Source: Zychaea mexicana (lineage: Eukaryota > Mucoromycota > Mucoromycetes > Mucorales > Lichtheimiaceae). Taken from it: a stretch of 64,000 nucleotides of DNA. The stretch is taken from contig NW_026516704.1 in NCBI RefSeq assembly GCF_025766255.1, positions 186,001 through 250,000 of the forward strand, read 5' to 3'. A program made the position numbers and the translations under genes. The notes below the pieces were generated by a model. The model ran no database searches. It was not told the DNA's origin and worked only from the letters and a program-made list of their open reading frames with translations. Positions 9,600 through 52,525 of this stretch are shown in pieces; position 1 is the first letter of the stretch, and the number at the start of each line of letters is the position of its first letter.

Positions 9600-10854
9600 G
9601 GATCCTTACAGATGATATCATCAACTTGCAGTTTACTCAACTCAATTCTTCCGACAAAGCAAAACGATGATGATATCATATAAGCTCATCCTGAAAAAGG
9701 TTTACATTATTGCTGGCTGTCAATGCTTCTATGAATGACGCATTTTGGGGTTCCTGGACGTGTAGTAATGAGGATCGGCAATAAAAAAGGAAAATGATAT
9801 CATCGTTTTCTTATATTTAAGCTCACATCTTCCGATGACCTCATTTGTAACCACTTATTCCGACATCAGATGCGCTAATAATAGAAGCAGTTCTGCTTCG
9901 GCTAGTGGAATATGTGATGACAACCATTATCATTCATTTTATCCATAAGGCAACTGTTTATCATGTGTGCGAACATGTAAATGAATGATCGGGATGTACT
10001 TCGTTTGTAAATTCCTTACTATTGATTCAATCACTTAATTTGACGTAATTGGAAAAGAAATGATCGGAAAAGAGAAAATACACTCATTTCCTTTGTTACT
10101 TCTACTGACGGCAGCTTGCTTTCTCCGCTAATGACACGAGTCATTACTTGTTCATCTACTTTACTACCCACAATGCATTTTTCTCTATGACGTACTACTT
10201 TACTAGATTTAGCATGGCTTCTCGATCAGTTGTATCAACTTTGTACATTCTGTCTGAGATTGTGCATCCTGGGGCCTGTTACAGAATTATCTTACCGTTC
10301 ACCCTTTGCCTTTTATGAGACACTATATACACGTAGAGTCTCAGTAGCTGTGTGTACTGCCGGTTGCAGTTTAATTCCTCCATATTACGATAACATATTG
10401 TATGATACTAGTAATACTACGTCGCTCTAACTACTATAAGCACCCACTTTTTTTTGTAAAAACTGTGCTTTAATCTTCTAACGATGCAATAACCCACATC
10501 GTGTAAAAAATGTTTATATTCTGTTTCTCTTATTCATTTTGAAATCGCTGTTCAATGTATAATAATAAACTATTCTTTTTTACTGCAGTATTCAAGTATA
10601 CCATGATATTTGAAGACACACATGAGCTTTCATTTAAAAGATACCGAATTTTGCCTTTTTTATATACATAATGGGTTCGGTTCTTCGGTTCGATTCTCGG
10701 TTCTACGGTTCTTGTCAGTTCTACGGTTCTTGTCGGTTCTAGTCAGTTCGGTTCTTGCTTTGGATGGTTCGGTTCGGTTCTTGCTTTGGATGGTTCGGTT
10801 CGGTTCCCTTCAAGAACCGAATCGAACCGAACCGTACGGAACCCTAAGTAGTGC
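9600..10854 (-). mobile_element. hAT 5' region, terminal repeat at 10846
   Basis: From 10846 leftwards, the sequence matches the left part of the hAT element at 3732 and the one at 63277 in the opposite orientation. The terminus reads TAGGGTTCCGTACGG inward from 10846 and is followed by a GGTTCGGTTC array (10675-10835). The 8 bases outside are AGTAGTGC (10847-10854), but no matching left copy was found. The match holds to about 10080; farther left the sequence diverges and leads towards the start of the hAT gene at 9244. I read this as the 5' flank of that hAT gene, an inference from orientation and spacing. The left limit is arbitrary. Confidence 0.6.
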
Positions 10855-11264: not shown

Positions 11265-14200
11265 CCTATATTGGCTCGGTGGCCATATCCGTAGTGAGGA
11301 ATTTTCGTCTACCGGTCACAACAAATATTGTAAAGAAAGGAAAAAATAGGTAGAAGCAAGTGCAAAGTGTATATTTATGATATGTTTGTTTACGCGAGAA
11401 AAGTATTGAAAACTATTACAAATATATGGGGAAAAATAAAGTTGTGGTTGAGTAACTAGTTCAATTTCTTTCTTTTTCGTGTATTATCATTATTTGCACT
11501 ACATGATGGGTGAGATCTGTTTTGACTGCCAGGGCAATTTTGTGGATCAGTGCAGCCTTCATTTTGACAAGTCCGGGAATATTTTTGCTGTTTCTTTGGT
11601 GGTAGGCTTTTGAGGAAATCAGCACGGCTTATGCTTGATGGTGATGATGATGGAGCTCTAGGTTGCATTTGCCGTATATAATGCTGTTGGTGTTGCGGCT
11701 GGATTGCTTGTTGCTGAGGTGTAGGACTATAGTGCATATGCTGCTGCACTTGGAATGATGGATATAATTGCGGCGGAGGCAGTTGCGGTTGTAGTGTAAA
11801 TGTAGTAGGCGGTGGCGGTAATGCTGACATGGGTGGACGTGCAAAGGAATACAAATCAGATTGGCTGTAAACTTGTTGTTGCTGTTGCATTGGCCGTGGA
11901 GCAAGCGGTTGGTAGACAGAAGATCTAGATTGCAGTCGTCTGGATGTACTACGTTGTATTGAGGATGGCAGTGTCGGTGCTGGCGGATTCGATCGAGGCT
12001 CCAAGACTTCAGCAGTACGGTCAGAGTTATCACGTATTTGGGATCGTGGGCGAGCTGTACCTTCCAAGCTATTCCTTATCACCGCGTTCTGACTCCATTT
12101 GTTGAAATGTGTGCGCAGATACTGTGGGTACTTATAAAAAATATTGCGCCCGTCAGTATGTGTCGAGTTCCATGACTTGGCAAAAACGGTCCACCTCGTT
12201 GAGTTCGGTTGCTGACTGTTGTAGAATTGAGATATCTGTCGGTTGAACAAAGCTACCTCTTCTTTTGTATGTACAGGTAGTATTGGATACCGGGTGCCTT
12301 GACGAGATGCTAAATATGCTGCTCTCACAGCTGCATTATCTCGTTTGTTGGCCTGTTCAATTGATGGTCTGTAACGCTGCATGCCATATGTATCCAAGCT
12401 TTCGTCGCTCGTCTTGCAAATGTCAAACTTTTCTTCAGTCGAGGCCAACAGATCCGTGTTCTGCCAATCAAGCCAATGTTTTGGTAGCTGCAATTCGCGT
12501 CGCAAGTATGCAAGCTGGATTTTGTTATTCATCCATATATCGTAATGTCCCTTGTATTGTTTGCCTGTGCGATTCAGCGTACCAACCTGCCACATAAGAA
12601 AATGTTCGAGTTGTTCAGTAAATTGGTCACTTTTTTCAGGCTATGAGATACACTTACATGTAAATTATGTTGTGTTCGATATTCGACAAGCAAATTAACC
12701 GCAAATCTCGGACTCGCATTGAAAGCTCCAAAATGCCTCTTTAAATTCTGGTGCACACCGCCCTCAAGAGAGTTTGTTCCCCTTAGACATTGATATACTG
12801 CCAAACCATTTTCATCCCGTCGTCGAAACAAGTACAATGATGTCCCAGGTGGATCGCTCAAATATCCTTTGCCAATAAGCTGTAGCAAATTTCGTGCGTC
12901 TTTCCAGGCCTGTTTGTCAAATAAGGGTCGACCACTTGAGGCGCATTTCAGAGGTCCAAACGTCATGAATAAATCGTACACATCTTGTACAATTTTTGAT
13001 GGTGGTGGGACAACGCGGCGTATTCGCTCGTTAATCCAAGATTTGCGACGCCAACGAACTAAAATAACATGGTTTTGATATTTCAAATTAAGCTTGTTGT
13101 CGCCCACAATGAAAGAGAATCATATAGATATATACCCAATTCAAATCTCTCTCCTTTTTCATGCAGAACCCGGGTGACAGCTGCAACATCTCCAGAATCC
13201 ATCCACAAAATTGCGTCGGTTAATTTACGTTGGAATTCTATGCGTAACCCATGTTTCTTTGGTATTGAGATTCTCTTGAGCGCATGCCAAGCATCTTGGA
13301 CGATTCTGGTGTGGATGGCGTTATCTTGTTCCAAGCGTTGTGGTCGATACTTTTGTAAAATAGGATCGAGGAGGTGACTGCCATAAATCTTGGAGCTCTC
13401 GTCGATAGCTAAAGTGTTTGGCGTTGGTACCGGCATATCATCGTCACTGTCGTCTTCCGAGTCGGTTTCATTAATATCCCATGCTTGCACGTCATTGTCG
13501 CTGCTATGATCAGTTTGACCAGCTTGCGATTCCGGATGATCCACGCTCTGCGATATGTTTAGTGTTTCCTCGTTGTGCACGGTGGCGACAGGCTTAATAA
13601 GTTGATAACAAGGACGGAGTGACAACAAACGCACTAATATACAAAACGGAGCAGCACCAAATGACGAAAGTGGCTGCCTATCACATAATTGCAACTTTGC
13701 CGCAGGGACCAAGACAGTAGTAACTTCAACCAGTGCACGATTTTCCGTTATCGTCCGCTTATTAAAGATTCTGGAAAAAAGTCAGGGTTAGCTTAATATT
13801 AGTAATATGATTTGACTTATTGTGTTATTCCTACTATGAATTGGTGCAAGCAAGGAGTAAGTAAGGGAGAGAATATGTACATACCCACTTTGTCTAGCAT
13901 CGCTGATTTTCCCGCGCGCCACCTCCACAGTACCATCGTCGCTTAGTACTGTTACATGTACACCAGCTCGTCGATTTATGATGTCGTTTCTAGGCGATGT
14001 CACTTGGAGATAAATTTGCCGACTACTCCAGGCATCCAAAGCTGCATAGTGTACTTGCTCGTCAGTAAGTCGACCTTCCCAATTGCCTTGTTGTAAATCC
14101 TTGGATAGACGATGTTGTAGAATTGTTGCGCACATATCTGCCAGACTTGTTCCAGTAATTGGTTTGCATTTGTACTCGTTGCATATTGTCAACAGGTCCA

Positions 14201-16319
14201 CGACATTGGATGCTTGAAGGTTATTGAATTGTTGAGGAAAAGATTGTGAAAGCCGAGTGATATCATTTGCGATGTTACGCCCAACCTTGATGATATCTTT
14301 GCGATTAAGCAGCGTCCAGATAGCATGTGGCAATGATGATAACTTCTCCAGCTTTAATATTGATACTCGGTCGTCATATGCAACTTGTATTATTGATACT
14401 GGATGCCACGTTGGATCATTTTCATGAAATGTCCACTCTGCGTCAAGACCAACGACGATCGGTTGCTGTTCAGTGCCATTTTGTTCGAGTAGTGGTGTCA
14501 AAGCAGCTTCGATTTGCAAAGGTGAGCTGTGAATTGTTACTGAAATTGTTGGTGGTAGCTGTAGCTGCGGCAGATGATAATATGGATCAGCGACTATACG
14601 TGGATGAACTTCAGTACGAAGAGATTCGATTTGTGTTTCAAAAAACTGTTTATCGGCCTCGACTTTGTCAGTAAAAAGGATTTCTGGGTGACGATGACCA
14701 TGGGCAGTAAGACTTTGTAGCATGGCTAATCGCAAAAATTAGTTTCGGTTACTGTAATGCAATCAGAGGAAATTGTAAGAAAGAAAGTATAGTATACCTT
14801 GTATTCCTTGTTCTATGTGATCCATGGATGTAGTAGGCACAAAAGCTTGATACCGAATCTCTCCGTATTCGTTTGTCATTGATACCAACCCTTCAAAAAT
14901 TTTGCACGAATCCATTTTGCAAAGATGCTTTGTCACCTATTATCAAAAACAAACAAAGCACTTGTCAGAATATATACACAAAAGCAAATAAATTAAACTC
15001 ACCTTATGGCTGTGGTCAATGTTGATTATGGTGGCTGGTAGAGAACTCATGTGGTTGTAGTGGTCGTTTATATGCATTTCAACAAATTCATTGTACATTT
15101 TTGTGAGATACTTAGGACCAGGTGTCGAACCACCATATCCATCTCGATCATCGAATGATGGGAAATTCTTGAACTGCCTTGATGCCGAGTGCACTGGTTT
15201 ATAAAACGAATTGATTGCCGACTGTCTAGTGGGTGATGGATTTTGCTGTTCGTTAGAATGTTCTTGCTGCTGTGGTCTTCCTTCCGCATACTGCCATTCA
15301 ATTTTGTCGTGTCGCAGGTGGTGTCTAGTGCTCAATGCTTTTGCAAATGGACCGGGCCCCATTCCGTTACCAAAGCACAGCCGCATATTTGTCATCAACT
15401 CCTTGGATACACCACTTTTATGTGAAAGTGTGGCCGGGTATTCGAGCGCAAGTTGTATGGGTAGCGATTTTTCTATCAAGTTCTCGTCTGTGCCCATAAT
15501 TGTGTTGACGTCGCATCCGTCGTTTTTGCATTGATATCGATAGGATAGGATGTAAAAAAAGTCGTCGTCGTCTGCGATGCGTCTGGCAAGTGGGTTTGAT
15601 GGAAATCCAAGCTCTGTGAGTTTTTGCTTGCACTTGGGACACTTGAGCTCTTCTACCAAAAGGTGGACAAGCCAAACGAACACACGTGGCAAATATAAGT
15701 CGGTTGGTTCAAAGTATTTCTTCTTGTACATAGCGAAAAAGGGCGCTGGTGGCAAAACCCAAAAGGTCTTGTTTTCGTAGCAAGCTGGCATTCCTTTGCT
15801 TCTTCTTTCTCTGTCAATTTTGTTGCGGACACTTGTCAGGTACGGCTCAAATACTTTAGGCGTTGCCAAGGTTTCCTCATCGCGTCCCACCATCGGTGTC
15901 ATTAAATCGTTAAACTGATGAAAAATAAATGAGCAAAATTGAGAGAATGTCCCTCAATAAGTGAGAGTCGAGCAGTGGAAACATACTTCACTGTGTGTAG
16001 ATATGTCAAACGTAAAAAAGTACTTTTTGACAGTGTCGTGTCAAAGTGGTTGTAGCAGCAGTAACCCGAGTATTCACCCTGCACTAGGGTTCCCAGCAGC
16101 TATATATATACTGCGGAACGCACTCAAGCTTTTGTGTAACGCTGGCTGTTATTCTTTATTCCTGATTGGACAGACTTTATTCCACCTTTGTTATTGGCGT
16201 AAATAACAATGCCGCACTTTATTTTTTACAAGCAATTGGTCAGTTTTTCTATACCGCACTTTATTCTGTAAATTTAACTGGCTAGGTCACTACGGGTACC
16301 GCCCGACTGCCCCTATATT
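11265..16319 (-). mobile_element. intact 5-kb DNA transposon with exonuclease-bearing transposase
   Basis: The element spans 11273-16311. Identical 8-bp sequences CCTATATT flank it at 11265-11272 and 16312-16319 (identity extends to 10 bp, CCTATATTGG). The two ends, read inward, are inverted repeats of equal length: 17 of 25 bases match, starting GGC and closing with the perfect 9-mer CCGTAGTGA (11289-11297, and its complement TCACTACGG at 16287-16295). A single intact gene fills most of it. An 8-bp duplication with imperfect terminal repeats recalls MULE-, Zisupton- or hAT-like groups. I do not recognise the superfamily from the ends alone. Confidence 0.7.
11456..15902 (-). CDS. intact transposase-like protein: DUF6729-like zinc domain, DDE-like core, internal DEDDy exonuclease
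   Basis: Six exons: 15902-15003, 14936-14798, 14725-13885, 13770-13136, 13058-12658 and 12586-11456. All five introns (66, 72, 114, 77 and 71 nt) are GT-AG, and the joined frame is exactly 1349 codons with stop, without internal stops. Residues 60-140 hold a zinc module (C88PKC91 ... C125-x4-C130) resembling DUF6729. A DDE-like fold follows: D296 in IINIDHSHKV and D366 in EILFTDKVEADKQFF. Residues about 430-590 are a WRN/EXD2-like 3'-5' exonuclease with all DEDDy residues: D441 and E443 (VGLDAEW), D501 (RNIANDITRL), Y573 and D577 (VHYAALDAW). E937 in CLRGTNSLEGGVHQNL is the candidate third acidic residue. The C-terminus is Pro/Gln-rich and ends with a Cys cluster (CQNEGCTDPQNC) and a basic tail. 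The domain assignments are by eye; the DDE role is inferred. Confidence 0.85.
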
Positions 16320-32578: not shown

Positions 32579-32651
32579 GCTTGAGTAGCTCAGTTGGGAG
32601 AGCGTTAGACTGAAGATCTAAAGGTCATGTGTTCAATCCACATCTCGAGCA
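32579..32651 (+). tRNA. tRNA-Phe (GAA)
   Basis: Seventy-three bases fold as a complete tRNA. The acceptor GCTTGAG pairs with CTCGAGC (one G-U). The D arm is TAGCTCAGTTGGGAGAGC, the anticodon stem TTAGA/TCTAA has loop CTGAAGA (anticodon GAA at 32612-32614), and the T arm is ATGTG-TTCAATC-CACAT. No intron. Box A and box B promoter elements are intact, so it should be transcribed by RNA polymerase III. It is the only host gene in the window that I can name. Confidence 0.95.
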
Positions 32652-38133: not shown

Positions 38134-39404
38134 ATGCAAAAATACATGCCAGGAGCTTTCCAAACAAACAACGTGCGAGACGAACTTACTTTGTTGGACG
38201 ACAGCACACGCTCTTCCATGCCCCCTCATTGGCTGACTTACAGTAGATTCGAGCATGAGAGTTTCCGCACATTTCGTCGTGCGTTTACTTCTTACATACT
38301 CGTCACAGGCGCTCAATCGGAGACAAGACGACTAGAAATTTTGCAAGGAGTATTGCAAGGACCGGCTTTAACCTATTATCAAACTCAAGTCTTGCCTGAA
38401 TTACAGGAAGAAAGAGATGAGAACAACTCCCCCGTCACAGTTATAGCAGCATTAGATTTGCTCGAAGACAACTACGTAACTGAATATGACATCCAACGAT
38501 TCCGTGAACACTTCTACACCATAATGCAGAAGATCGATGAAAGCCCCAGATCTTTCTCGGAAGACTACGTGAAGCAGCTCATGAAGCAGGCATCACGGAA
38601 GCAAGCCAAGTACAATCTCGATTCAAAGCTGGATTACTACCCGAAATCAGAAAACATTGCATTAGAAGCCGCGCATTGACGCACGAATTGGTACTTCAAT
38701 ACGCTGAAGGATATTGGAATGCTGAAAGAGACAACGGAAGCATTCGCAGAGTAAACCAAAGACGAAGAGACGGCCAGACGCTCGCCGTAATGGGTGAACC
38801 CCACAACCAACTAGACACGGAAGAAGATCAAATCTTAGATGAAAAGATCGAACAACTAGTTGAGGCAGGATACTCCCCTGCAACAGCAGCGCGAATTGCC
38901 TTCAGATCACAACAAAGAAGCAACGTGGTTCAGCAAAACAATGCCAACTACAATGCACGAAGACCAAGCTATCCACCTCGAAGTCAAGAAAGACGATACC
39001 CTTACCAACCAGGTCGACGACAAAACTACAATGACCAGCAAAATGGGAATGAAAGACAACGCCCATATCAAGACCGCCGACCTTACTACAACAACAACCA
39101 GCGACAATATCAACAGCAACAAAGCCATAACAACGGACGTCTACAACAACAAAAGGACCACGATCAAAGGCAGTCGAACGGAAGACCCAACCAGAACGAG
39201 GAACCTGCCATGAGAACACCAAAAGAAGATCGACTGAACAGTAATAGCCGACCCAATGTATACAGCAATTTCGCACATTTGGAAGATCGATACCAAGAGG
39301 ACTACTACGACGATGTTGACGATTATTGGCATTCAGAAGAAGAATACTACGACGACCAGTATTACGAAGAATCTCAAGGATACAACAAGCCAAAAAACTA
39401 CTAG
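38134..39404 (+). CDS. gag: Gag (one internal frameshift)
   Basis: Structural protein that packages the element RNA. It starts at ATG 38134. The N-terminal half contains the capsid-like helical region (FRTFRRAFTSYI, ILQGVLQGPALTYYQTQVLP, FREHFYTIMQ). A shift of frame near 38620 is needed to continue into FKAGLLPEIRKHC, a block typical of Ty3 Gag; read without the shift, the first frame stops at 38679. The second half is a long Gln/Asn/Arg/Tyr-rich RNA-binding tail, with an acidic Tyr-rich end, and stops at 39404. I see no CCHC knuckle; the basic tail may replace it. The final codons form a -1 slippery site. Confidence 0.85.
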
Positions 39405-39436
39405 GGCCAGTTGCTCATGAGAGACGCGGTCAACTG
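39392..39436 (+). promoter_or_regulatory. programmed -1 frameshift signal, gag-pol junction
   Basis: A AAA AAC lies at 39392-39398, exactly in phase with the gag frame (codons CCA AAA AAC TAC TAG). Nine bases later a 6-bp perfect stem begins, CAGTTG (39408-39413) with CAACTG (39431-39436), across a 17-base loop. A -1 slip bypasses the gag stop and enters the pol frame (LLGPVAHERRG). This is a textbook arrangement, though function is inferred. Confidence 0.75.
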
Positions 39437-41523
39437 AACGCCCCCACCAACTATAACAAACCCGCAAGGAACCGAAAAACAACCAAAAGCAAAAGCAAAT
39501 CCGACCTGCAACATCGAGAATATAACAACGCTCAAGACTTATACACTGTACAAAAGCGACCCTTGAGCTTAGAAAACACTGAAAAACGACGAAGTATGAG
39601 CCTGAGATTAGGATCAAAAGTCAATAAAATTGTACACGCAGACAAACCCGATCCAGCAAAAAAACGACAACGACGAGTACAATTCCAGGAACAAGAAATC
39701 AACAAACGACCATCATCTTCAAGAACCAATGAGCCGACGAACCAACCACAGGCTATACCAAGAGAGATGGCTACACCAATGGATACTACTAGGAATGACC
39801 AAACGATGACGGATCGACCAGTTGAACGACCGATGGAAATAGACAGATCCCCGAACAAAGGAAAGGAACCTATACGGAAGAACAACATCGACGAAGCAAG
39901 AAAACCAAAGCCACAACGCGCGCCTAGAACGAAACCAATTATCGACTACGATATTGTAGAAGATGTATCCAACATAACAGCCCAAATAAAGATCGGAGAA
40001 CTTATCAAGGCTTGTCCTAAATTTAGACGAGACCTACATAGCTTCACTGCTGTACGCAGAAGAAAAGATAAATCTCTAACATATTGGAACTGAAGCCAAA
40101 TCTAGACTCAACTGCAGCATACGCAAATTTTCATCTGAAAGGACATCCAGTTGAAACACTTATTGATACAGGAGCAGCCAAAACCTGCATATCAAGAATG
40201 CTTGCGGACACATTAAGTCTAAAGATTGATGGACCGTCAAACACAGTGTTTACTTTGGGAAACGCGAAGTTTCAAGCCTCCCAAGGAGTAATTCGAGACT
40301 TCAAAATCCAAGTTGGCAATTTCCTTGAAGTGCCTATTACAGTCGAAGTATTAGGTAATTGCCCAGTGTCACTCATTATTGGAACAAACTTCTTGGATCT
40401 TGTAAAAGCAAAGATAAATTTTGAGGATGCAACCATCACCGTCAACTATAAGGGACAACAATCCTGTGCACCACTTACATACGTTCGAGAAATGCCCAGC
40501 AAGAAGACACAACGTTACCAAGAACCACGTATAACATTATACGAAGAATCCGACGAATCCGACATAGAAGAAGAATCTGAAACCGAAAGCGACGACAGCA
40601 ATTACGAATACTCCAGTAGTGAAAACGACGAATCAACCTCATCAGAAGAAAGTGATGATGAAGAATCCTCGGGAGAAGAGGAGATCGAACAAACAAAACA
40701 TGCAGAATTCTTTCTAAACGATGACCGCCAACGTTACAAACCAAATGTCAAGGAATGGACAGCTGCCGATGGATCACCCTGTTTTGAAGTCGAAACAGCC
40801 GAGGGATTCACAATACCACCAAAGGGAAAAGCATATTTCTATGGGAAATTACCTCGCACAATCTCTGCAGATGTAAACTTCTATCCGCAAATATCAGCGA
40901 CTGCACCCATTGAAGCAACCAATTATCCTAGCATACGAGCCGGAGCCACAGACTGCACGATCACCCTGGAAAACTTTTCATTCTGCGAAGTAGATATCCC
41001 AAGTGGATTCCTACTAGGAGACTACATGGAGCAACATTATATATGAGACGATGACTCCGATACCGTTTACTCTGAAGACTTGAACAATGAAGAGATATAT
41101 GGTTACGATATCAACCTGCAATATCCATATCCAACACTGCAACGACAAGGAGCCCGATACGAGGAAGAGTTATTCTTCTTGGATCACGGTGCACAATCAC
41201 CTACACTACTGGAGACTAGGAACATCGAGCCGAATAACACCATAGAAGTTTGGTCGAGAGAGAACATTACTATACCCGCCGGTTTTACCACTCAAGTGCA
41301 CGGTAGATTTCTCAGACCCACAACGAAACCACTATATTTTGTACCAGAACAAGGAGTCCACCCTGCAGAAACAAGACATGAATACTTCTGCCCAGACGTA
41401 GAACAAGGAGCCACAACCTTCACCATCACGATCAAAAATAATCTGCCTTCACAATTGATTATTTCACCACGAGCTTTATTGGCACCTTTCATGAAATACA
41501 AGACAATGCAGACCCCGGAATAG
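39399..41523 (+). CDS. pol: Pol N-terminal part: linker, retropepsin, tandem dUTPase-like beta domains
   Basis: After a basic linker (39405-39930) comes IDYDIVEDVSNITAQIKIGE, the block usually found before Ty3 protease. The protease follows in the -1 frame from about 40072, with catalytic LIDTGAAKTC (40164-40193) and the later LIIGTNFLDL. An acidic Ser/Glu stretch (40540-40700) is followed by two similar beta-rich blocks: TIPPKGKAYFYGKLP ... ENFSFCEVDIPSGFLLG (40810-41020) and TIPAGFTTQVHGRFL ... NNLPSQLIISPRALLAPF (41270-41490). Each has an Asn-containing strand and a late Gly/Ala turn, reminiscent of dUTPase-like folds. A TGA at 41044-41046 separates them in the same frame. The protease assignment is firm; the dUTPase-like reading is tentative. 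Confidence 0.75.
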
Positions 41524-41581
41524 AAACACCAATGGTGAACCGAACCGAAACCAACAAAGATATTCCAACACCGACCCCGTT

Positions 41582-43204
41582 AACCGAAGAACAATTAAAG
41601 TTACCAACATACCTGACATCCCTGATGACCACGATGGCAAGCTACGAAAAGCCTTTCTCGAACTCGTACGACAATATCAAGACTGCTTTGCCTGGACAGA
41701 CGACGATCTTGGATGTACCGACCTATTGGAACATAAAATCACTCTAAAGAAGGACGCGATACCAGTAGCCTCCAAACCCTACAGATTAGCACCTGTAGAA
41801 GCTGCTGCACTGAAAAAGGAACTTGATCGGTACTGCTGCCTCGGAATAATACGACCATCCAACTCACCTTGGGCCGCACCAGTCATGCTCATCAAGAAAA
41901 AGGACAACAAGTCATACAGATTCATTGCCGACATGCGAGGGTTGAATAAATCATCGATACGACCGGCGACATACGTAGACAGCTTTTGGCAGGAAATACA
42001 AGCTGTAGGACAATCCCGGATTTTTTCAAGCCTTGACTTAAAGGATGGATACTTCCAAGTAAAACTCGCCGAACAAAGCAAACCGCTAACGGCTTTCTCT
42101 ACAAAATTTGGAGCATATGAGTTCAACCGACTACCACAAGGATACCACGCTGCACCATCTGTTTTCGTAACCCTAGTACGACTAGCATTCCAAAAAGAAG
42201 AAGACATACTTTGTCGATACCTGGATGACTTGAACGTGCATTCAAAAACAACTGAGGACCATCTTGAACACCTTCGCCGAGTATTTGAATGTTTACGAAA
42301 TGCTGGACTAAAACTTGGAGTTAAAAAATGTTGGTTTTTCAAAACTGATATTTCATTCCTTGGACATATCATCACTGGAGAAGGAATTTGCGTAGATGAA
42401 GCACGCACCAAGAAAATTCGAGAATTACCAATACCGAAAACTGTGACACAGCTGAAGTCCTTTTTAGGCTGTATGTCATGGTACCGAAACTGGATACCGC
42501 GGTTCAGTGCGATAGCACGAGTACTATATAACCAGACCAAGCAAGATGCCAAGCCATAGGGAGAAGAGGAAACAAAAGCTTTTAATAAACTGAAAGAAAC
42601 TCTTATTTCTCCACCCATCCTAGCACGACCAGATTTCCATAGACCTTTCATACTGAGAGTAGATGCATCAAAGGAAGCATTTGGCGCAGCATTAATGCAA
42701 AAGGACGACCAAGGAAAAGAGAGAGTAATATCTTACCACTCACGCGTCACCACAAAAGGAGAAAAGAACTATAGCAGTTCCCGATTAGAGATGGCATGTC
42801 TTGTCTGGAGTGCAAGACTCTTGAAACCATTCTTGTTGAATAAATTCGACGTGTATTGTGACCACAGCGCACTACGTGGAATATTAAACCAGAAAGAACC
42901 AACAGGCATAATGGCCAGGTGGATTGAGACACTGAGTGAATACGAATTCGACGTACACTACAAGAGCGCCCACCAAAACCGAAACGTTGACTTCCTCAGC
43001 AGACTACCAGGATTTGGAGAAACCACGAACAGCAAATTCGACCGTTGCCTACGATTCAAATGTGGAAATTTCGAAGACGTTGAACTGGAGAAAAAACAAG
43101 AAGAAAAGACGACGACTGACGAACCAATACAGCAAGACGAGAATACACCAAAAATAACCGAAGTCACCAACACAGGACATTCCAAACGCCGCGAACAAAT
43201 CTAA
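41582..43204 (+). CDS. pol: Pol: reverse transcriptase and RNase H
   Basis: Copies the element RNA to DNA and removes the RNA strand. The frame begins near 41582 (IPDDHDGKLRKAF) and holds RT blocks YRFIADMRGLNK, FSSLDLKDGYFQV (first catalytic Asp), RLPQGYHAAPSVF, CRYLDDLNVHS (YLDD box), FLGHIITGEGI and LKSFLGCMSWYRNWIP. An in-frame TAG at 42557-42559 (KP*GEEE, expected Trp) interrupts the RT-RNase H connection. RNase H follows: LRVDASKEAFGAAL, SSRLEMACLVWS, and DHSALRGIL, then VDFLSRLPG. The frame stops at 43204, about 250 nt before the integrase frame starts. Confidence 0.9.
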
Positions 43205-43450
43205 AGATTCCAGACCACAACAACTGCATAACACTTGAAACACTGAACACAATCAATCAACGTACCACAAAGCCAACCGGACGCCGATCACAAACTGATT
43301 ATCAACACATCACGAACAACACTGATAGCAACATACCAACGTCGATCACAACACTATTACAACATCACCCCGCACAAAGCTTATTTTGAAACATTCTCAA
43401 ATTACTCGACGACATACAACTACATCTACTGTGTCACAACCAAAATCACA

Positions 43451-44963
43451 ATGGATAACAACATATACAACGGACTCAAGTATTATCTTGAAACACTCGA
43501 ATACCCACCAACTAGTAGCAAGGAACTACGGAAAACAATTCGCACTCAAAACGAACACTATATCGTTATAAATGGAAAAACTCTACCGCAAAGGATCCAC
43601 GCCAAAAATGATCCTACAGAGGAGCGAGATCAAAGATGCAATCTGGATGGTACACAAACATCCTCTTGGGGGACATTTTGCATTCCAAAATACACTATTC
43701 AAGCTAAAAACAAAATACTACTGGCGAGGAATGGCGCAAGACGTAAAACAATTCATCGCACAATGCGACCGGTGTCACCAACACAAGAAACCCAACAACC
43801 AAGAAACACTATACCCGATTCCGGTTTCGAACATTCCGTTTGAGAACGTGCATATCGATATCAAACATCTACCAACAGCCCAGAGCCTACATCGCTATAT
43901 CATTGTAGCTATTTGTTCTTTCAGCAAATATGTCGAAGCACGTGCCTTACAAGTGGCAAATGCAGCAGAAGTTTCTCTGTTTGTTTACGAATGTGTCATT
44001 ACTATACATGGCTGCCCACGTGTTTTGTGCTCAGACAACGGCTTACCTATCCAAAACAACCTTGTAAATGCCGTCTGCAAGCAATACGGCATCGAACATC
44101 GACTCACATCACCATATCATCCACAAGCGAACGGACTAGTCGAACGATTTAATCGAACGGTCGGAGTCATGTTGAAAAGACTCAATAAAGAAGAAAAGAA
44201 GAACTGGCCAATGTACCTACCTGCACTACTATTCGCATACCGCAGCATTCGACAAGAAACGACGAAGCGATCTCCATTTTACTTGATCTACGGACGAGAA
44301 CCACATACACCTTTCGACCGACACGTGCAACCACAAACAAACATTGCAGATCTCCTGGAAGAGGATGATGAGCGCGACGAAGATACGATCATACTCAACT
44401 TATTTGAGGAACATATCACAAGACTCAATACAATAAGAGAAGAAGCGATCGATACAGTCAAAAGTGCACAAGCGGCACAGAAACAGAGAATCGAAAAGAA
44501 ATTACTGCAGCAAGGCAAGGAACTGAAACGCATTTTCCAAATTGGAGATACTGTTCAAGTATATCAAAATTACTTGGAAGGAAATTGGGCAGGACGCCTA
44601 GAAGATCTATGGGAAGGACCATTCTTGATTCACAAGGTCAACAAACGCGGCACCTATCGATTAAAAACGATGCAAGGAAGATTCTTACCGAACCCCTACC
44701 ATGGAAACCGATTGCGCTCTTATACCCTACCTGATACCGAGTACCGAGCCCCAATACCTCAGGCATCGCTGCACCTCATTACCGACGAGGTCGATGCAGT
44801 ACCACCACAAGAAGATGTATCAGAATCAGACCAAGACGAAACAACACAGACGATGCCGCAGCAAGGAAAATCGAGAAGGACTAAAAATGCAGGAAATCGG
44901 AGAAAAACAAAGAAAAAGAAGAAAAGAGATAGTAGCTATCGACCTACTAGAGGACGTTCATAG
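43451..44963 (+). CDS. pol: Pol: integrase with GPY/F module
   Basis: Inserts element cDNA into the genome. The N-terminal lead-in (MDNNIYNGLKYYLETLEYPP) is in one frame and shifts by +1 near 43576 into EKLYRKGSTPKMIL. The zinc domain is H2C2 (HKHPLGGHF ... CDRCHQHK). Core residues are the Asp in HIDIKHLP, the Asp in LCSDNGLPIQ and the Glu in HPQANGLVERFNRT. The C-terminal GPY/F module reads LEDLWEGPFLIHKV, followed by a Lys/Arg-rich tail. No chromodomain is present, so this element is not a chromovirus. Integrase from 43572 to the stop is uninterrupted. Confidence 0.92.
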
Positions 44964-45115
44964 AACCATAACTCTGAAATATAAACGTGCATATGCATAA
45001 AAAAGAATTTATACATTTCAAAAAGAACATATTATAAAATAGAGAAAAAAAAACGTATATAAAGAAGAAAAATATCCTAAACAATCAACTCTATCATACC
45101 ACTTGAACTACTACA

Positions 45116-48119: not shown

Positions 48120-50990
48120 TCGCAGTTTCATCCCGCCATCGGATGTATCCGTGCAAACCATATTCCTGATCGCCATTCACTTGGATTAATGGATCGTGAG
48201 TGTTCGTATTGTCACGCGCGTATGTGGGTGCAAGAGCGTGTATCAGCATCTTCGGAGACATCACCTGAATTCCAGCTATGCTGTGCCAAAGGGTCCATTA
48301 CTCTTCCTCCGCTGAGTGAAACTCCACCAGAGATAGCAGAGCTATTATGTGGTGATGACCGTGCCTCGCAGGATTTCTGTAAAAACATTCGTGCATACAA
48401 CAATGCTTTGAGTTTTACGTCCCTTGGTGCCAGCGTTGATCAAGCTGTAGCAAACGTGCGAGGTGGTGCATACAACTTTCGGATCCATGGCACCATGCAC
48501 CATATGATTGGGTCTTTGCTCCCTAACACGGATGAGGATACCCCAGCTTTTGCACAAATCTACGTCTATGATCCTTCCATGGAATTGCAAATACGTCAGA
48601 ATGCCACGAATGCCCCTGTGAACACAGATACTTTGCGCACTTTGCAGGAGCTGATGCATCGTGTTTGCCCCTTTGCCCAAGCTTTCTAAAACATGGCCGA
48701 TCGCTATCGTGACGACAATGTCGAAAACGTTACATTAGTGATTCGCGCAGAGGGTACCCCGGATCAAGGGCGGTATAATAGACCAACAGGTGATGAAGTT
48801 GGAATCCTGATTGTGGATAACACGCATGACGGCCAGGTTGGGAACCGCGACATTGTTGTGCGAGCTCAGTCAAATCAATTGCAGCGTATCTCAGAGAAGC
48901 ATCGTTTCTATGACGCCATGCATTATGTATTGATATTTCCTCAAGGTGATATTAAGCTCTAATCGTCTGCTGTAGTGCGTAATTCTAACTTACACAATTT
49001 CAGGTGATGAGGGTTGGACCATCGAAGCGCGCAATGACAATGGTGCTCACATAACAGTGATGGAATGGTATAAATATCGCCTGATGGTGCGCGAGAACGG
49101 TGACGACGACAATGGACACGATCTGCATCGCTTCGGTAAGCTGTTTCAACAGTTTATTACTGACATGTATGCCAAGATGGAATCCGGATGCCTTGGCTAC
49201 ATCACGTAGAACCAGGACAAGCTACGTTCAGACTTGTACAATAGTGTTGTAGATGCCATGAATCTGGGAGACAATGATATGGCCAACGTCGGTAGACGTG
49301 TGATTTTACCATCGTCTTTCACCGGTGGCCCGCGGCATATGCAACAGCTCTATCATGATGCCATGAGTATCATGCGGTGCTTTAGAAAGCCTGATCTTTT
49401 CGTTACATTTACGTGCCACCCGCGATGGCACGAGATACAAGATTCTCTTCTTCCAGGACAGACAGCACCCGACAGACCGGATATATGTGTTCGGGTATTC
49501 AAACTGAAATTGAAACAGTTGATGGATGATCTTACCAAAAACATGGTTCTGGGCACAGTGATTGCACATGTCCATACTGTCGAATTTCAAAAACACGGGC
49601 TACCACATGCTCATATCCTCTTGATCCTTGCCAGAGATGATAAACCAACGACACCTGAAGATGTGGATGATATTGTATCGGCCGAGCTTCCCAACTCGGA
49701 GCAATACCCAGCCGCACGCGCAATAGTGGAAAGACACATGATGCATAGACCCTGTAGTGACCGTCATCCTCGATCGCCATGCATGCAAGACGGTGCCTGT
49801 TCAAAGCGCTTTTCAAAGCAGTTTATGGATGAGACCAATATGTGTGACAATGGATATCCTGTTTACAAACGACGCCGTAATGATGCCGATTTTGTTGAAA
49901 AAAATGGTGTTCGTATGCATAATCAATGGGTGGTCCCTCACAACATCTTTTTATGCACCAAGTACGACGCACATGTCAATGTAGAAATCTGCACCTCGAT
50001 CGCTTCCATTAAATATGTCTACAAATACGTATACAAAGGTCACGACCGTGCGTCAGTAGCTGTAACTCATCAACAACGTGCGCAAACCGAAACCAACCAA
50101 CACGGTGAACCACCTATAAACGAAATTCACACCTATCTCGATACACGATACGTGTCTGCATGCGAAGGCTCCTGGCGTCTCTTTTCATTCTCTTTACACA
50201 AGGAATTCCCAAGTCACCAGCGTTTATCCGTACACCTTCCAGATGAGCAACTGGTGCATTTCAACGAGGATGATGATCCTGGAGCTGTTGTTGGTCGTGC
50301 ACATGAAACTACATTGACAGCTTGGTTTAACTACAATGCTGAAAATGAGGATGGGCGAGCGGTACTATACCCTGATTTTCCTGAGAATTACGTCTTTGTC
50401 AAATCAGAACGTCGCTGGAAAATCCGTGAACGCAGTCATGGTGGCACCATCGGACGCATGTACACTGTCTCCCCAAGTCAAGTCGAAAAGTATCATTTAA
50501 GAATATTGTTGTACCATGTTCCTGGTGCAACAAGTTTTAATGACCTCAAGACCGTTGAAAACGAGTGCTTGCCGACATTTCAAGCTGCTGCAAGGAGGCG
50601 CGGTCTGCTAACTGGGCAACAAGAATGGCTGGATTGCTTAGAGCAGGCATCCACGTACCAACTTCCCAGAGCTTTACGACAGCTTTTTTCTGTTCTCCTA
50701 ACATACTGTCAGCTTGAAGATCCATACGCTCTATGGATAGCTTACCGCACACATCTTTGTGAAGACTTTTTGCAAGCTGCAAGAGTTGAAGCAAATGACC
50801 AATCTCTGCCACCAGACGACCGTATTTACGGACAAGGATTACTTGCTATTAAATCCATCATGGCAAGTGCATCATGGTCCCTTACGGAATTCGATGGCTT
50901 TATTCTTCCTGAGGAAACTGAAAACAACCAACAACCGCTGGAACCACTGATCATCCGTCAACAACGAGACATTGCTACAAGCTTACAAGC
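48120..50990 (+). pseudogene. Helitron 1 Rep (HUH endonuclease) region
   Basis: Rolling-circle replication initiator half of the Helitron protein. The frame from 48189 includes SYCHARMW (another Cys pair), the Helitron_like_N region (FRIHGTMHHMIGSLLP) and, after a stop at about 48689, EVGILIVDNTHDGQVG. A 58-nt intron (48946-49003) leads to GWTIEARNDNGA. A TAG at 49207-49209 splits the frame before QDKLRSDLYN. The HUH motif is HTVEFQKHGLPHAHILL (about 49567-49620). The two-tyrosine site is YVYKYVYKGHDR (about 50020-50055), each Tyr able to cut one DNA strand. The 693-codon frame from 49234 is open, so decay is slight. Confidence 0.88.
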
Positions 50991-52525
50991 TCAGCCCGCC
51001 CTGGAACTCGCATTCAATGACGATCAGCAGCAGTATTTGATGGAGTATGCAGAGCTTTGGAACGTCCACGCACCGAATCAAAGGTTTACTTTGTCGATGG
51101 ACCCGGTGGCACAGGCAAAACATATGTGTTCAATGCTCTTCTTGAGCATGTCAGGCGTCGTGGTGATATTGCTCTTTCAGTTGCTACTAGTGGCACCGCA
51201 GCACTGCTCATGTAAGGCGGTAGAACAGCACATTCATTATTTACGATTCCACTTGAGATTGATCAAACCACATACTGCTCATTTACACTACGATCTGCCA
51301 CAGCACAACTTCTAAGACTTGCAACTTTGATCATATGGGACGAAGCATCAATGATCAGCAAAGATCTCATTGAATGCGTCAATCGAAGTTTGCAAGATCT
51401 GATGAAGTCAGAAGAACCAGCATTAGAGCATGTTCCTTTTGGTGGAAAATTAGTTGTTTTTGGCGGTGATTTTCGCCAGGTAATCATACATTTCTATTAA
51501 TCTGCAGAGTATTGAGGTAAACAACTTGACTTTGATTGTATATTGTTGTACAGGTTCTTCCAGTCATTCCTAGAGCTTCTCGAGCACAGATTGTGGCACA
51601 ATGCTTAAAGCGATCCAATGTATGGCGCCACACCCAAGTCTTCCATCTTCAGACCAATATGCGTGTACAGCAAGCCACCGACGCCCACAACTCTGAACAA
51701 TTATGAGAGTTTGCCGAATATCTATTGTGAATAAGTGAAAACAGAGAGCCAATTGCTCCTGCTACTGAAGATAGGGTTAAAGTCCGTGACTCTATGCTAA
51801 TGCCTGGATACAGCCTACTCACTTTAATTGACACTCTATATGGCAATATGCTTACAACCTCTCCCTCCCGCGAGTTCCTCATGTCACGAGCTATTCTGAC
51901 ACCAAAAAATGTCGATGTTGCAACAATCAACGAGACAATATTGGAATCAAAATTCCCTGGAACGTCTGAGGAGTTTCTCAGTGCAGACAGTATGGTCGAT
52001 CCTGAAGAGTCCTTGGCATATCCAACGGAGCTTTTAAACTCACTTTCTCCTTCCGGCCTTCCACCACACAAACTCACTCTCAAGCCAGGTTGTCCTGTAA
52101 TGCTCTTACGAAACCTAAATACCGCACAAGGCCTTTGCAACGGAACACGTTTGATCATCACGTCTTTTCGCTGCAATGTCATTGAAGCTGAAATCGCCAC
52201 AGGTACACATGTTGGCGAAACAGTCCCATTGCCTCGCATCACACTTACTTCCAAAAAGAGCGAAGGTCCCATCGAACTCCAAAGGACACAGTTCCCTATA
52301 CAGCTTGCGTTTTCGATGACGATCAACAAGGCTCAAGGACAAACATTTGACACAATTGGCCTTTATCTACCGAAACCTGTTTTTACTCATGGTCTACTAT
52401 ATGTAGCATTGTCGTGGGTCAGAACGCCACGCTCTGTACTGATCACCTTGGATCGTGATGATTCTAAGGTTGACGGTCAAGAAGGCATGTACACCAGAAA
52501 TGTTGTATATACTGAGGTACTTTAA
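50990..52525 (+). pseudogene. Helitron 1 PIF1-like helicase region
   Basis: Helicase half of the same protein. A one-base shift near 51035-51085 precedes Walker A (VDGPGGTGKTYVFNALLEH). TAA at 51214-51216 falls in LLM*GGRTAHS. Walker B is IIWDEASM (about 51330). FGGDFRQ is followed by a 74-nt GT-AG intron (51480-51553) and VLPVIP. Two TGA codons near 51705 and 51730 interrupt SEQL*EFAEYLL*ISEN. The C-terminal half is open from 51794: ILTPKNVDVATIN, PGCPVMLLRNLN, GLCNGTRLIIT, MTINKAQGQTFD and THGLLYVALSWVRTP, ending at 52525. The product is not complete in this copy. Confidence 0.88.

What the first reader, a model, noticed from the sequence alone, without database searches (positions are those of the whole stretch)
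11265..16319. Apparently intact DNA transposon encoding a six-exon, 1348-residue protein
Seen: 8-bp direct repeats CCTATATT flank 25-bp inverted repeats (17/25 match, with a perfect CCGTAGTGA). Inside is one gene whose six exons join in frame without any stop, in a window where almost every other element is broken. Inference: a recently active element of a family I cannot place in a named superfamily from its ends.
Basis: partly seen in the sequence, partly recalled or inferred. Interest (0 to 1): 0.9.

Follow-up and report, generated by a model that had tools for sequence, protein, structure and literature searches.

The report
Recently active Dada-like fungal DNA transposon
This is a complete, very recently mobile jumping gene in a fungal genome whose cut-and-paste enzyme appears to carry a DNA-chewing enzyme inside it, as in the known Dada elements, but it lands at varied sites rather than in small RNA genes.

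Summary
Window 11273-16311 is a 5,039-bp DNA transposon with a perfect 8-bp target duplication, 17/25 inverted ends and one six-exon gene (1348 aa, no stop). The genome holds five near-identical copies: three identical over 5,039 bp (the window's included), and two identical to each other with nine differences from the window. All five frames are open. Each of the four copies with both flanks has its own perfect 8-bp duplication. An unbroken relative of the window's target lies on contig C259 (95%). The protein has a putative DDE triad (D296, D366, E937) and a DxxH motif (786-789). A WRN-like DEDDy exonuclease (433-586) sits between the second D and DxxH, as published for Dada transposons of Laccaria and Ectocarpus (PMC3706591). 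A second family in the genome (32% protein identity) shares the layout, GGC...GCC ends, an inverted repeat starting at position 17, and 8-bp duplications (3 of 6 copies). Described Dada elements make 6-7-bp duplications and target RNA genes; the Dada-U6 and Dada-U1 ends lack TIRs. I therefore call this Dada-like, a new variant, not a proven Dada member. The DDE assignment rests on motifs only. Pfam's DUF6729 falls in the N-terminal part of related proteins here.

The parts
11265..11272 (.). left 8-bp target-site duplication CCTATATT
   Evidence: identical to 16312-16319; three other complete copies have different perfect 8-bp duplications
11273..16311 (-). the transposon proper, 5,039 bp, orientation of its gene
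   Evidence: identical copies at C190 and C231, near-identical at C223 and C226; homology between copies stops at these ends
11273..11297 (+). left terminal inverted repeat, CCGTAGTGA at its positions 17-25
   Evidence: 17/25 match to the other end; 8 places in the genome within 3 mismatches
16287..16311 (-). right terminal inverted repeat, CCGTAGTGA at its positions 17-25
   Evidence: 6 places in the genome within 3 mismatches
16312..16319 (.). right 8-bp target-site duplication CCTATATT
15003..15902 (-). exon 1, aa 1-300: zinc-finger candidate C88/C91/C125/C130 and putative first catalytic Asp D296
14798..14936 (-). exon 2, aa 301-347 (last codon split)
13885..14725 (-). exon 3: putative second catalytic Asp D366 and PF01612 DEDDy exonuclease aa 433-586 (D441, E443, D501, Y573, D577)
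13136..13770 (-). exon 4: acidic linker and DxxH motif (D786-H789)
12658..13058 (-). exon 5: putative catalytic Glu E937 in RGTNSLEGGVHQN
11456..12586 (-). exon 6: Gln/Pro-rich tail and C-terminal Cys/His cluster aa 1312-1334

Best explanation
An autonomous, recently mobile cut-and-paste DNA transposon of Dada-like design. Its protein is most likely a DDE transposase with a WRN-type DEDDy 3'-5' exonuclease inserted between the second catalytic Asp and the DxxH motif. Shown: several identical copies with different 8-bp duplications, an unbroken relative of the window's target site, open frames in five of five young copies, a signature of purifying selection, and a complete set of exonuclease catalytic residues. 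Inferred: the transposase binds the repeat that starts at position 17 of each end, cuts at the GGC termini and joins them to a target with an 8-bp stagger, using D296, D366 and E937; the exonuclease processes 3' ends during the reaction (the suggestion made for Dada in PMC3706591). Because the four complete young copies have exact element ends, I think trimming acts on donor-site flanks or intermediates rather than on the element's own 3' ends.
For: Five near-identical copies, three of them identical over 5,039 bp. Perfect 8-bp duplications CCTATATT, CATACTGG, AAAATTTT, AGAAGCCT in 4 of 4 young copies with both flanks. Joined window flanks match C259 at 95% over 198 bases without a break. dN/dS 0.32-0.54 against 8 of the 9 older loci fetched. 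PF01612 at aa 433-586, WRN-like by profile, E 6.9e-24. D296 and D366 invariant in 4 of 4 aligned rows; D786, H789 and E937 invariant in 3 of 3. D1-D2 spacing 70, against 68 (D567, D635) in Dada-U6_DR. The order D, D, exonuclease, DxxH is the one described for Dada of Laccaria and Ectocarpus. A second family in the same genome repeats the architecture, the GGC ends and the 8-bp duplications.
Against: The DDE fold is not shown: no Pfam or PDB profile covers those parts and no structure was computed. No comparison with an actual Dada protein could be made. Two older copies with both ends (C101, C277) have no duplication, nor have 3 of 6 copies of the second family. Expression, splicing and activity are untested.
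Confidence: 0.84

Rival explanations
1. It is a member of the Dada superfamily proper, and the 8-bp duplications, TIRs and lack of an RNA-gene target are variation within the exonuclease-bearing branch. This is a finer reading of the best explanation, not its opposite.
For: Same order of DDE, exonuclease and DxxH as Dada of Laccaria (also a fungus) and Ectocarpus; N-terminal four-Cys and C-terminal Cys/His clusters; inverted repeat set back from the tip in both families, as Dada-U6 has 9-bp sub-terminal repeats. Exonuclease-bearing Dada families have no target in their names (Table 1).
Against: Duplications are 8 bp, TIRs reach the tips, and no RNA gene was found at 6 of 6 joined sites by ARAGORN; Rfam searches of the flanks were also empty. 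Cys/His spacings differ from those given for Dada-U6_DR.
Confidence: 0.5
2. It belongs to another superfamily with 8-bp duplications, such as Zisupton/KDZ or hAT.
For: KDZ-type Zisupton makes 8-bp duplications (PMC12730594, passages), and this genome holds 75 KDZ matches.
Against: None of the 75 KDZ matches lies in the element or in its four near-identical copies. Pfam found no transposase family in the protein at E up to 10, though HMMER's filters drop weak matches.
Confidence: 0.06
3. The nested exonuclease is no longer an enzyme, or plays only a structural part like an inserted domain.
For: Its dN/dS (0.49) is not lower than the protein's general level, and Dada elements outside the exonuclease-bearing branch are described without it.
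Against: D441, E443, D501 and D577 are kept in the window protein and in the paralogues L031, L048 and L047.
Confidence: 0.2
4. A host gene with chance flanking repeats.
For: A long intron-containing frame.
Against: Homology between copies stops at the ends in unrelated flanks, with four different duplications and an unbroken related target site.
Confidence: 0.01

Closest known systems
Exonuclease-bearing Dada transposons (Laccaria bicolor Dada-1_LB/Dada-2_LB, Ectocarpus Dada-1_ES; Kojima and Jurka 2013, PMC3706591, section 5 and passages seen)
   Same: DDE-type transposase with a DEDDy exonuclease between the second D and DxxH, all DEDD residues kept, N-terminal Cys cluster, intron-containing gene; 5.0 kb lies within the 4.7-11.0 kb Dada range.
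   Different: 8-bp duplications, TIRs to the tips, no RNA target found. The paper names no target for the exonuclease-bearing families; whether their ends resemble these is unknown to me.
Target-specific Dada (Dada-U6, -U1, -tRNA, -5S; PMC3706591, PMC8869645, passages)
   Same: Putative DDE plus DxxH; inverted repeat set back from the tip.
   Different: They make 6-7-bp duplications at fixed sites in RNA genes; Dada-U6 and Dada-U1 have no terminal inverted repeats; the exonuclease is reported for Laccaria and Ectocarpus elements only.
Kyakuja-Dileera-Zisupton (KDZ; PMC12730594, passages)
   Same: Zisupton makes 8-bp duplications; present in this genome.
   Different: KDZ profile absent from this element.
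WRN / EXD2 3'-5' exonuclease domains (PDB)
   Same: The DEDDy exonuclease domain, E 6.9e-24 (WRN) and 4e-21 (EXD2) by profile.
   Different: Here it lies between the parts of a putative transposase domain.

Membership tests
Dada | DDE triad with a DxxH motif after the second D | tested here: met
   By motif only: D296, D366, D786xxH789, E937, kept in the paralogues; fold not tested
Dada (exonuclease-bearing branch) | DEDDy exonuclease between the second D and DxxH with its four acidic residues | tested here: met
   PF01612 at 433-586 between D366 and D786; D441, E443, D501, D577
[quoted passage not shown]
   C88, C91, C125, C130; spacing CX2C-X33-CX4C against CX4C-X34-CX2C derived from the positions given for Dada-U6_DR
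Dada | C-terminal CCHC motif | tested here: inconclusive
   Cys/His cluster C1312, C1317, C1323, H1331, C1334, spacing unlike Dada-U6_DR
Dada | 6-7-bp target duplications | tested here: not met
   8 bp in 4 of 4 young copies with both flanks, and in 3 of 6 copies of the second family. The 2013 paper does not rule out 8 bp for Dada-U1
Dada | Insertion in snRNA, tRNA or 5S rRNA genes | tested here: not met
   No tRNA at 6 of 6 joined sites; no Rfam match in the flanks. Joined sites could not be given to Rfam. The paper names such targets only for families with clearly definable termini
Dada | No terminal inverted repeats but sub-terminal ones (stated for Dada-U6 and Dada-U1) | tested here: not met
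   17/25 matches from the tips, but the only long exact run is the sub-terminal CCGTAGTGA at 17-25
Dada | Sequence similarity to Dada transposases | not testable with these tools
   Protein database switched off; the paper's alignment is a supplement with no look-ups allowed
KDZ | KDZ transposase domain PF18758 | tested here: not met
   Absent from the protein at E up to 10; 75 matches elsewhere in the genome, none in the five copies

The most novel reading that the evidence does not exclude
The DUF6729-plus-exonuclease elements form their own superfamily, sister to Dada: TIRs beginning GGC with a binding repeat fixed at position 17, 8-bp duplications, no fixed target, and a nested DEDDy exonuclease that is an obligatory step of transposition. 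Fungal genes annotated DUF6729 would then largely be transposases of this group.
Probability: 0.3. Interest if true: 0.65.

Novelty: new variant of a known kind. Interest (0 to 1): 0.52.

Why it matters
The exonuclease-bearing Dada families were named without a target and, as I read the 2013 paper, without clearly defined ends. This element gives exact ends, duplication length and insertion sites for that architecture, in several identical young copies and in a second family. Two questions become testable: what a 3'-5' exonuclease does inside a transposase, and whether RNA-gene targeting was gained or lost within this group. It also suggests a meaning for DUF6729, a domain name that no paper in the searched library contains.

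Tried and rejected
Searches for relatives in viral contigs and in prokaryote genomes found none. Pfam gave only the exonuclease and a below-threshold InvH match; KDZ was then excluded with its own profile. PDB profiles of the D1-D2 and DxxH-E regions gave the exonuclease and weak, chance-like matches. An automatic search for 8-bp duplications with GG...CC ends around two single-copy paralogues and four older copies gave only chance-like pairs. A first pattern with at most three bases between duplication and repeat found nothing, because 16 bases lie between them. One sub-threshold Rfam match (snoZ242, E 0.34, bits 22.9 against 90 required) lies inside the second family's element in L031 and was set aside.

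Full report
What was checked. The transposon proper is 11273-16311 (5,039 bp), with the 8-bp CCTATATT on each side. The ends match at 17 of 25 positions, with CCGTAGTGA exact at positions 17-25 (simple binomial chance about 1.3e-5). The gene is on the minus strand, 15902-11456, and gives 1348 residues.

It moves. A search of the own genome (50.3 Mb, 305 contigs) with the first 1089 residues listed 84 matching stretches, which include five near-identical copies: the window (C242), C190, C231, C223 and C226. Laid on the window's coordinates, C190 and C231 are identical to it over 5,039 bp. C223 and C226 share the same nine differences from the window (eight substitutions and one inserted base); C226 was compared from 11284 on, because its contig starts inside the element. 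All five frames have no stop, and the four copies compared with the window have no coding gap. Homology ends at the element's ends. The four copies with both flanks carry CCTATATT, CATACTGG, AAAATTTT and AGAAGCCT, each perfect. Older or partial copies lie at C101, C24, C61, C4, C21 (two), C227, C201 and C277; C101 and C277 keep both ends but show no duplication.

Empty site. Window flanks joined with one duplication match C259 at 95% over all 198 bases. Four further places span the junction at 78-79% and three more at 82-83% over a shorter stretch (C259 read). So the window copy sits in a repeat whose relatives lack it. End counts are low, 8 left and 6 right within three mismatches, which argues against many short derivatives with these ends.

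Selection. Against 8 of the 9 older loci fetched (C227 not used) dN/dS is 0.32-0.54, although those copies carry 2-7 stop codons each. Pooled over five of them, the uncorrected ratio is lowest (0.25) in the DxxH-E part, 0.49 in the exonuclease and highest (0.62) in aa 1-112. The exon joins are supported by paralogue L031, whose part aligning with aa 116-973 is one stop-free frame; this covers 4 of 5 junctions. At the fifth, paralogue L047 also has an interruption.

Architecture. C88, C91, C125 and C130 form a zinc-finger candidate. D296 and D366, 70 apart, are invariant in 4 of 4 aligned rows. A PF01612 exonuclease spans 433-586, with D441, E443, D501, Y573 and D577; its nearest solved relatives are WRN and EXD2. 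D786-x-x-H789 and E937, in RGTNSLEGGVHQN, follow and are invariant in 3 of 3 rows. The DDE assignment rests on these motifs. No Pfam or PDB profile match covers those parts and no fold was computed.

Second family. Elements at C223:795k, C76 and C33 are 97.8-98.8% alike in DNA and 32% identical in protein to the window element (C223:795k copy). Their ends read GGCGGGAGTAAAGTAGCCGGACC and GGCATGGGTAACATGTCCGGACC, also 17 of 25 matched, with an exact repeat starting at position 17 as in the first family. Of six copies with both ends, three have perfect 8-bp duplications (C33 CCATTTGG, C223 GTTTTTTT, C76 AAGAAGTG) and three do not (C291, C106, C240). The L031 protein matches both DUF6729 and the exonuclease over their cut-offs. 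DUF6729 has 43 matches in the genome but is not detected in the window protein. Its match in L031 ends before the first catalytic Asp.

Comparison. A DDE transposase with a DEDDy exonuclease between the second D and DxxH is described for Dada transposons of Laccaria bicolor and Ectocarpus siliculosus, with the suggestion that it processes 3' ends (PMC3706591; section 5 read, other passages). Described Dada elements make 6-7-bp duplications, and many sit in snRNA, tRNA or 5S genes (PMC8869645, passages only). Here the duplications are 8 bp, the seven perfect ones in the two families share no motif that I can see, and ARAGORN found no tRNA at the 6 joined sites tested. Rfam gave no match in the flanks; the one sub-threshold match is inside a second-family element, and the one tRNA in the window lies about 16 kb away. 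KDZ is excluded by its own profile. The host is a fungus by its many chitin-synthase genes; that model also rings in four of 14 bacterial or archaeal control genomes, so the inference rests on the number and strength of matches. Species unknown.

Conclusion. Mobility is firm. The Dada-like design is well supported. Formal Dada membership stays open, because described features (duplication length, RNA target, absence of TIRs) are not met and no direct sequence comparison was possible: the protein search could not be made. The listings of my paper searches (for the broad ones only the best rows are shown) held no report of an exonuclease-bearing Dada element with defined ends. Subscription papers and Repbase reports were not searchable.

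Noticed in passing
L061 (G000:C137:13200-17600), minus strand: A long open frame (437 aa, running off the fetched end) carries a DUF6729 domain and a Gln/Pro-rich tail; comparison of the window protein with this 4.4 kb showed no exonuclease or DDE part. Possibly a host gene made from the N-terminal module, or a truncated element.
   Followed up: partly
window 39000-45000 and 49234-52525: Pfam finds retroelement parts (aspartyl protease, reverse transcriptase, integrase) and Helitron parts (Helitron_like_N, Pif1 2B) in 5 of 10 long frames examined; the other 5 had no match.
   Followed up: no
window 10098-10846: A repeat just left of the element also lies inside the interrupted older copy at C4 (83-87% identity, loci L039 and L040), so it probably belongs to another element.
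   Followed up: no
L041 and L042 (C21:30500-38500 and C21:21000-29000): Two older copies on one contig share the same left flank and lie about 9.6 kb apart, suggesting a segmental duplication.
   Followed up: no
L042, L043, L044, right of the older copies: Short direct repeats (GGCCACGCAACGGTTAACCTGCC...) replace the right end of the element in several older copies.
   Followed up: no
host genome: 75 KDZ transposase matches and 43 DUF6729 matches, both lower bounds: the genome is rich in large DNA transposons.
   Followed up: partly
window 32579-32651: An intact tRNA gene, the only Rfam match above threshold in the window.
   Followed up: no
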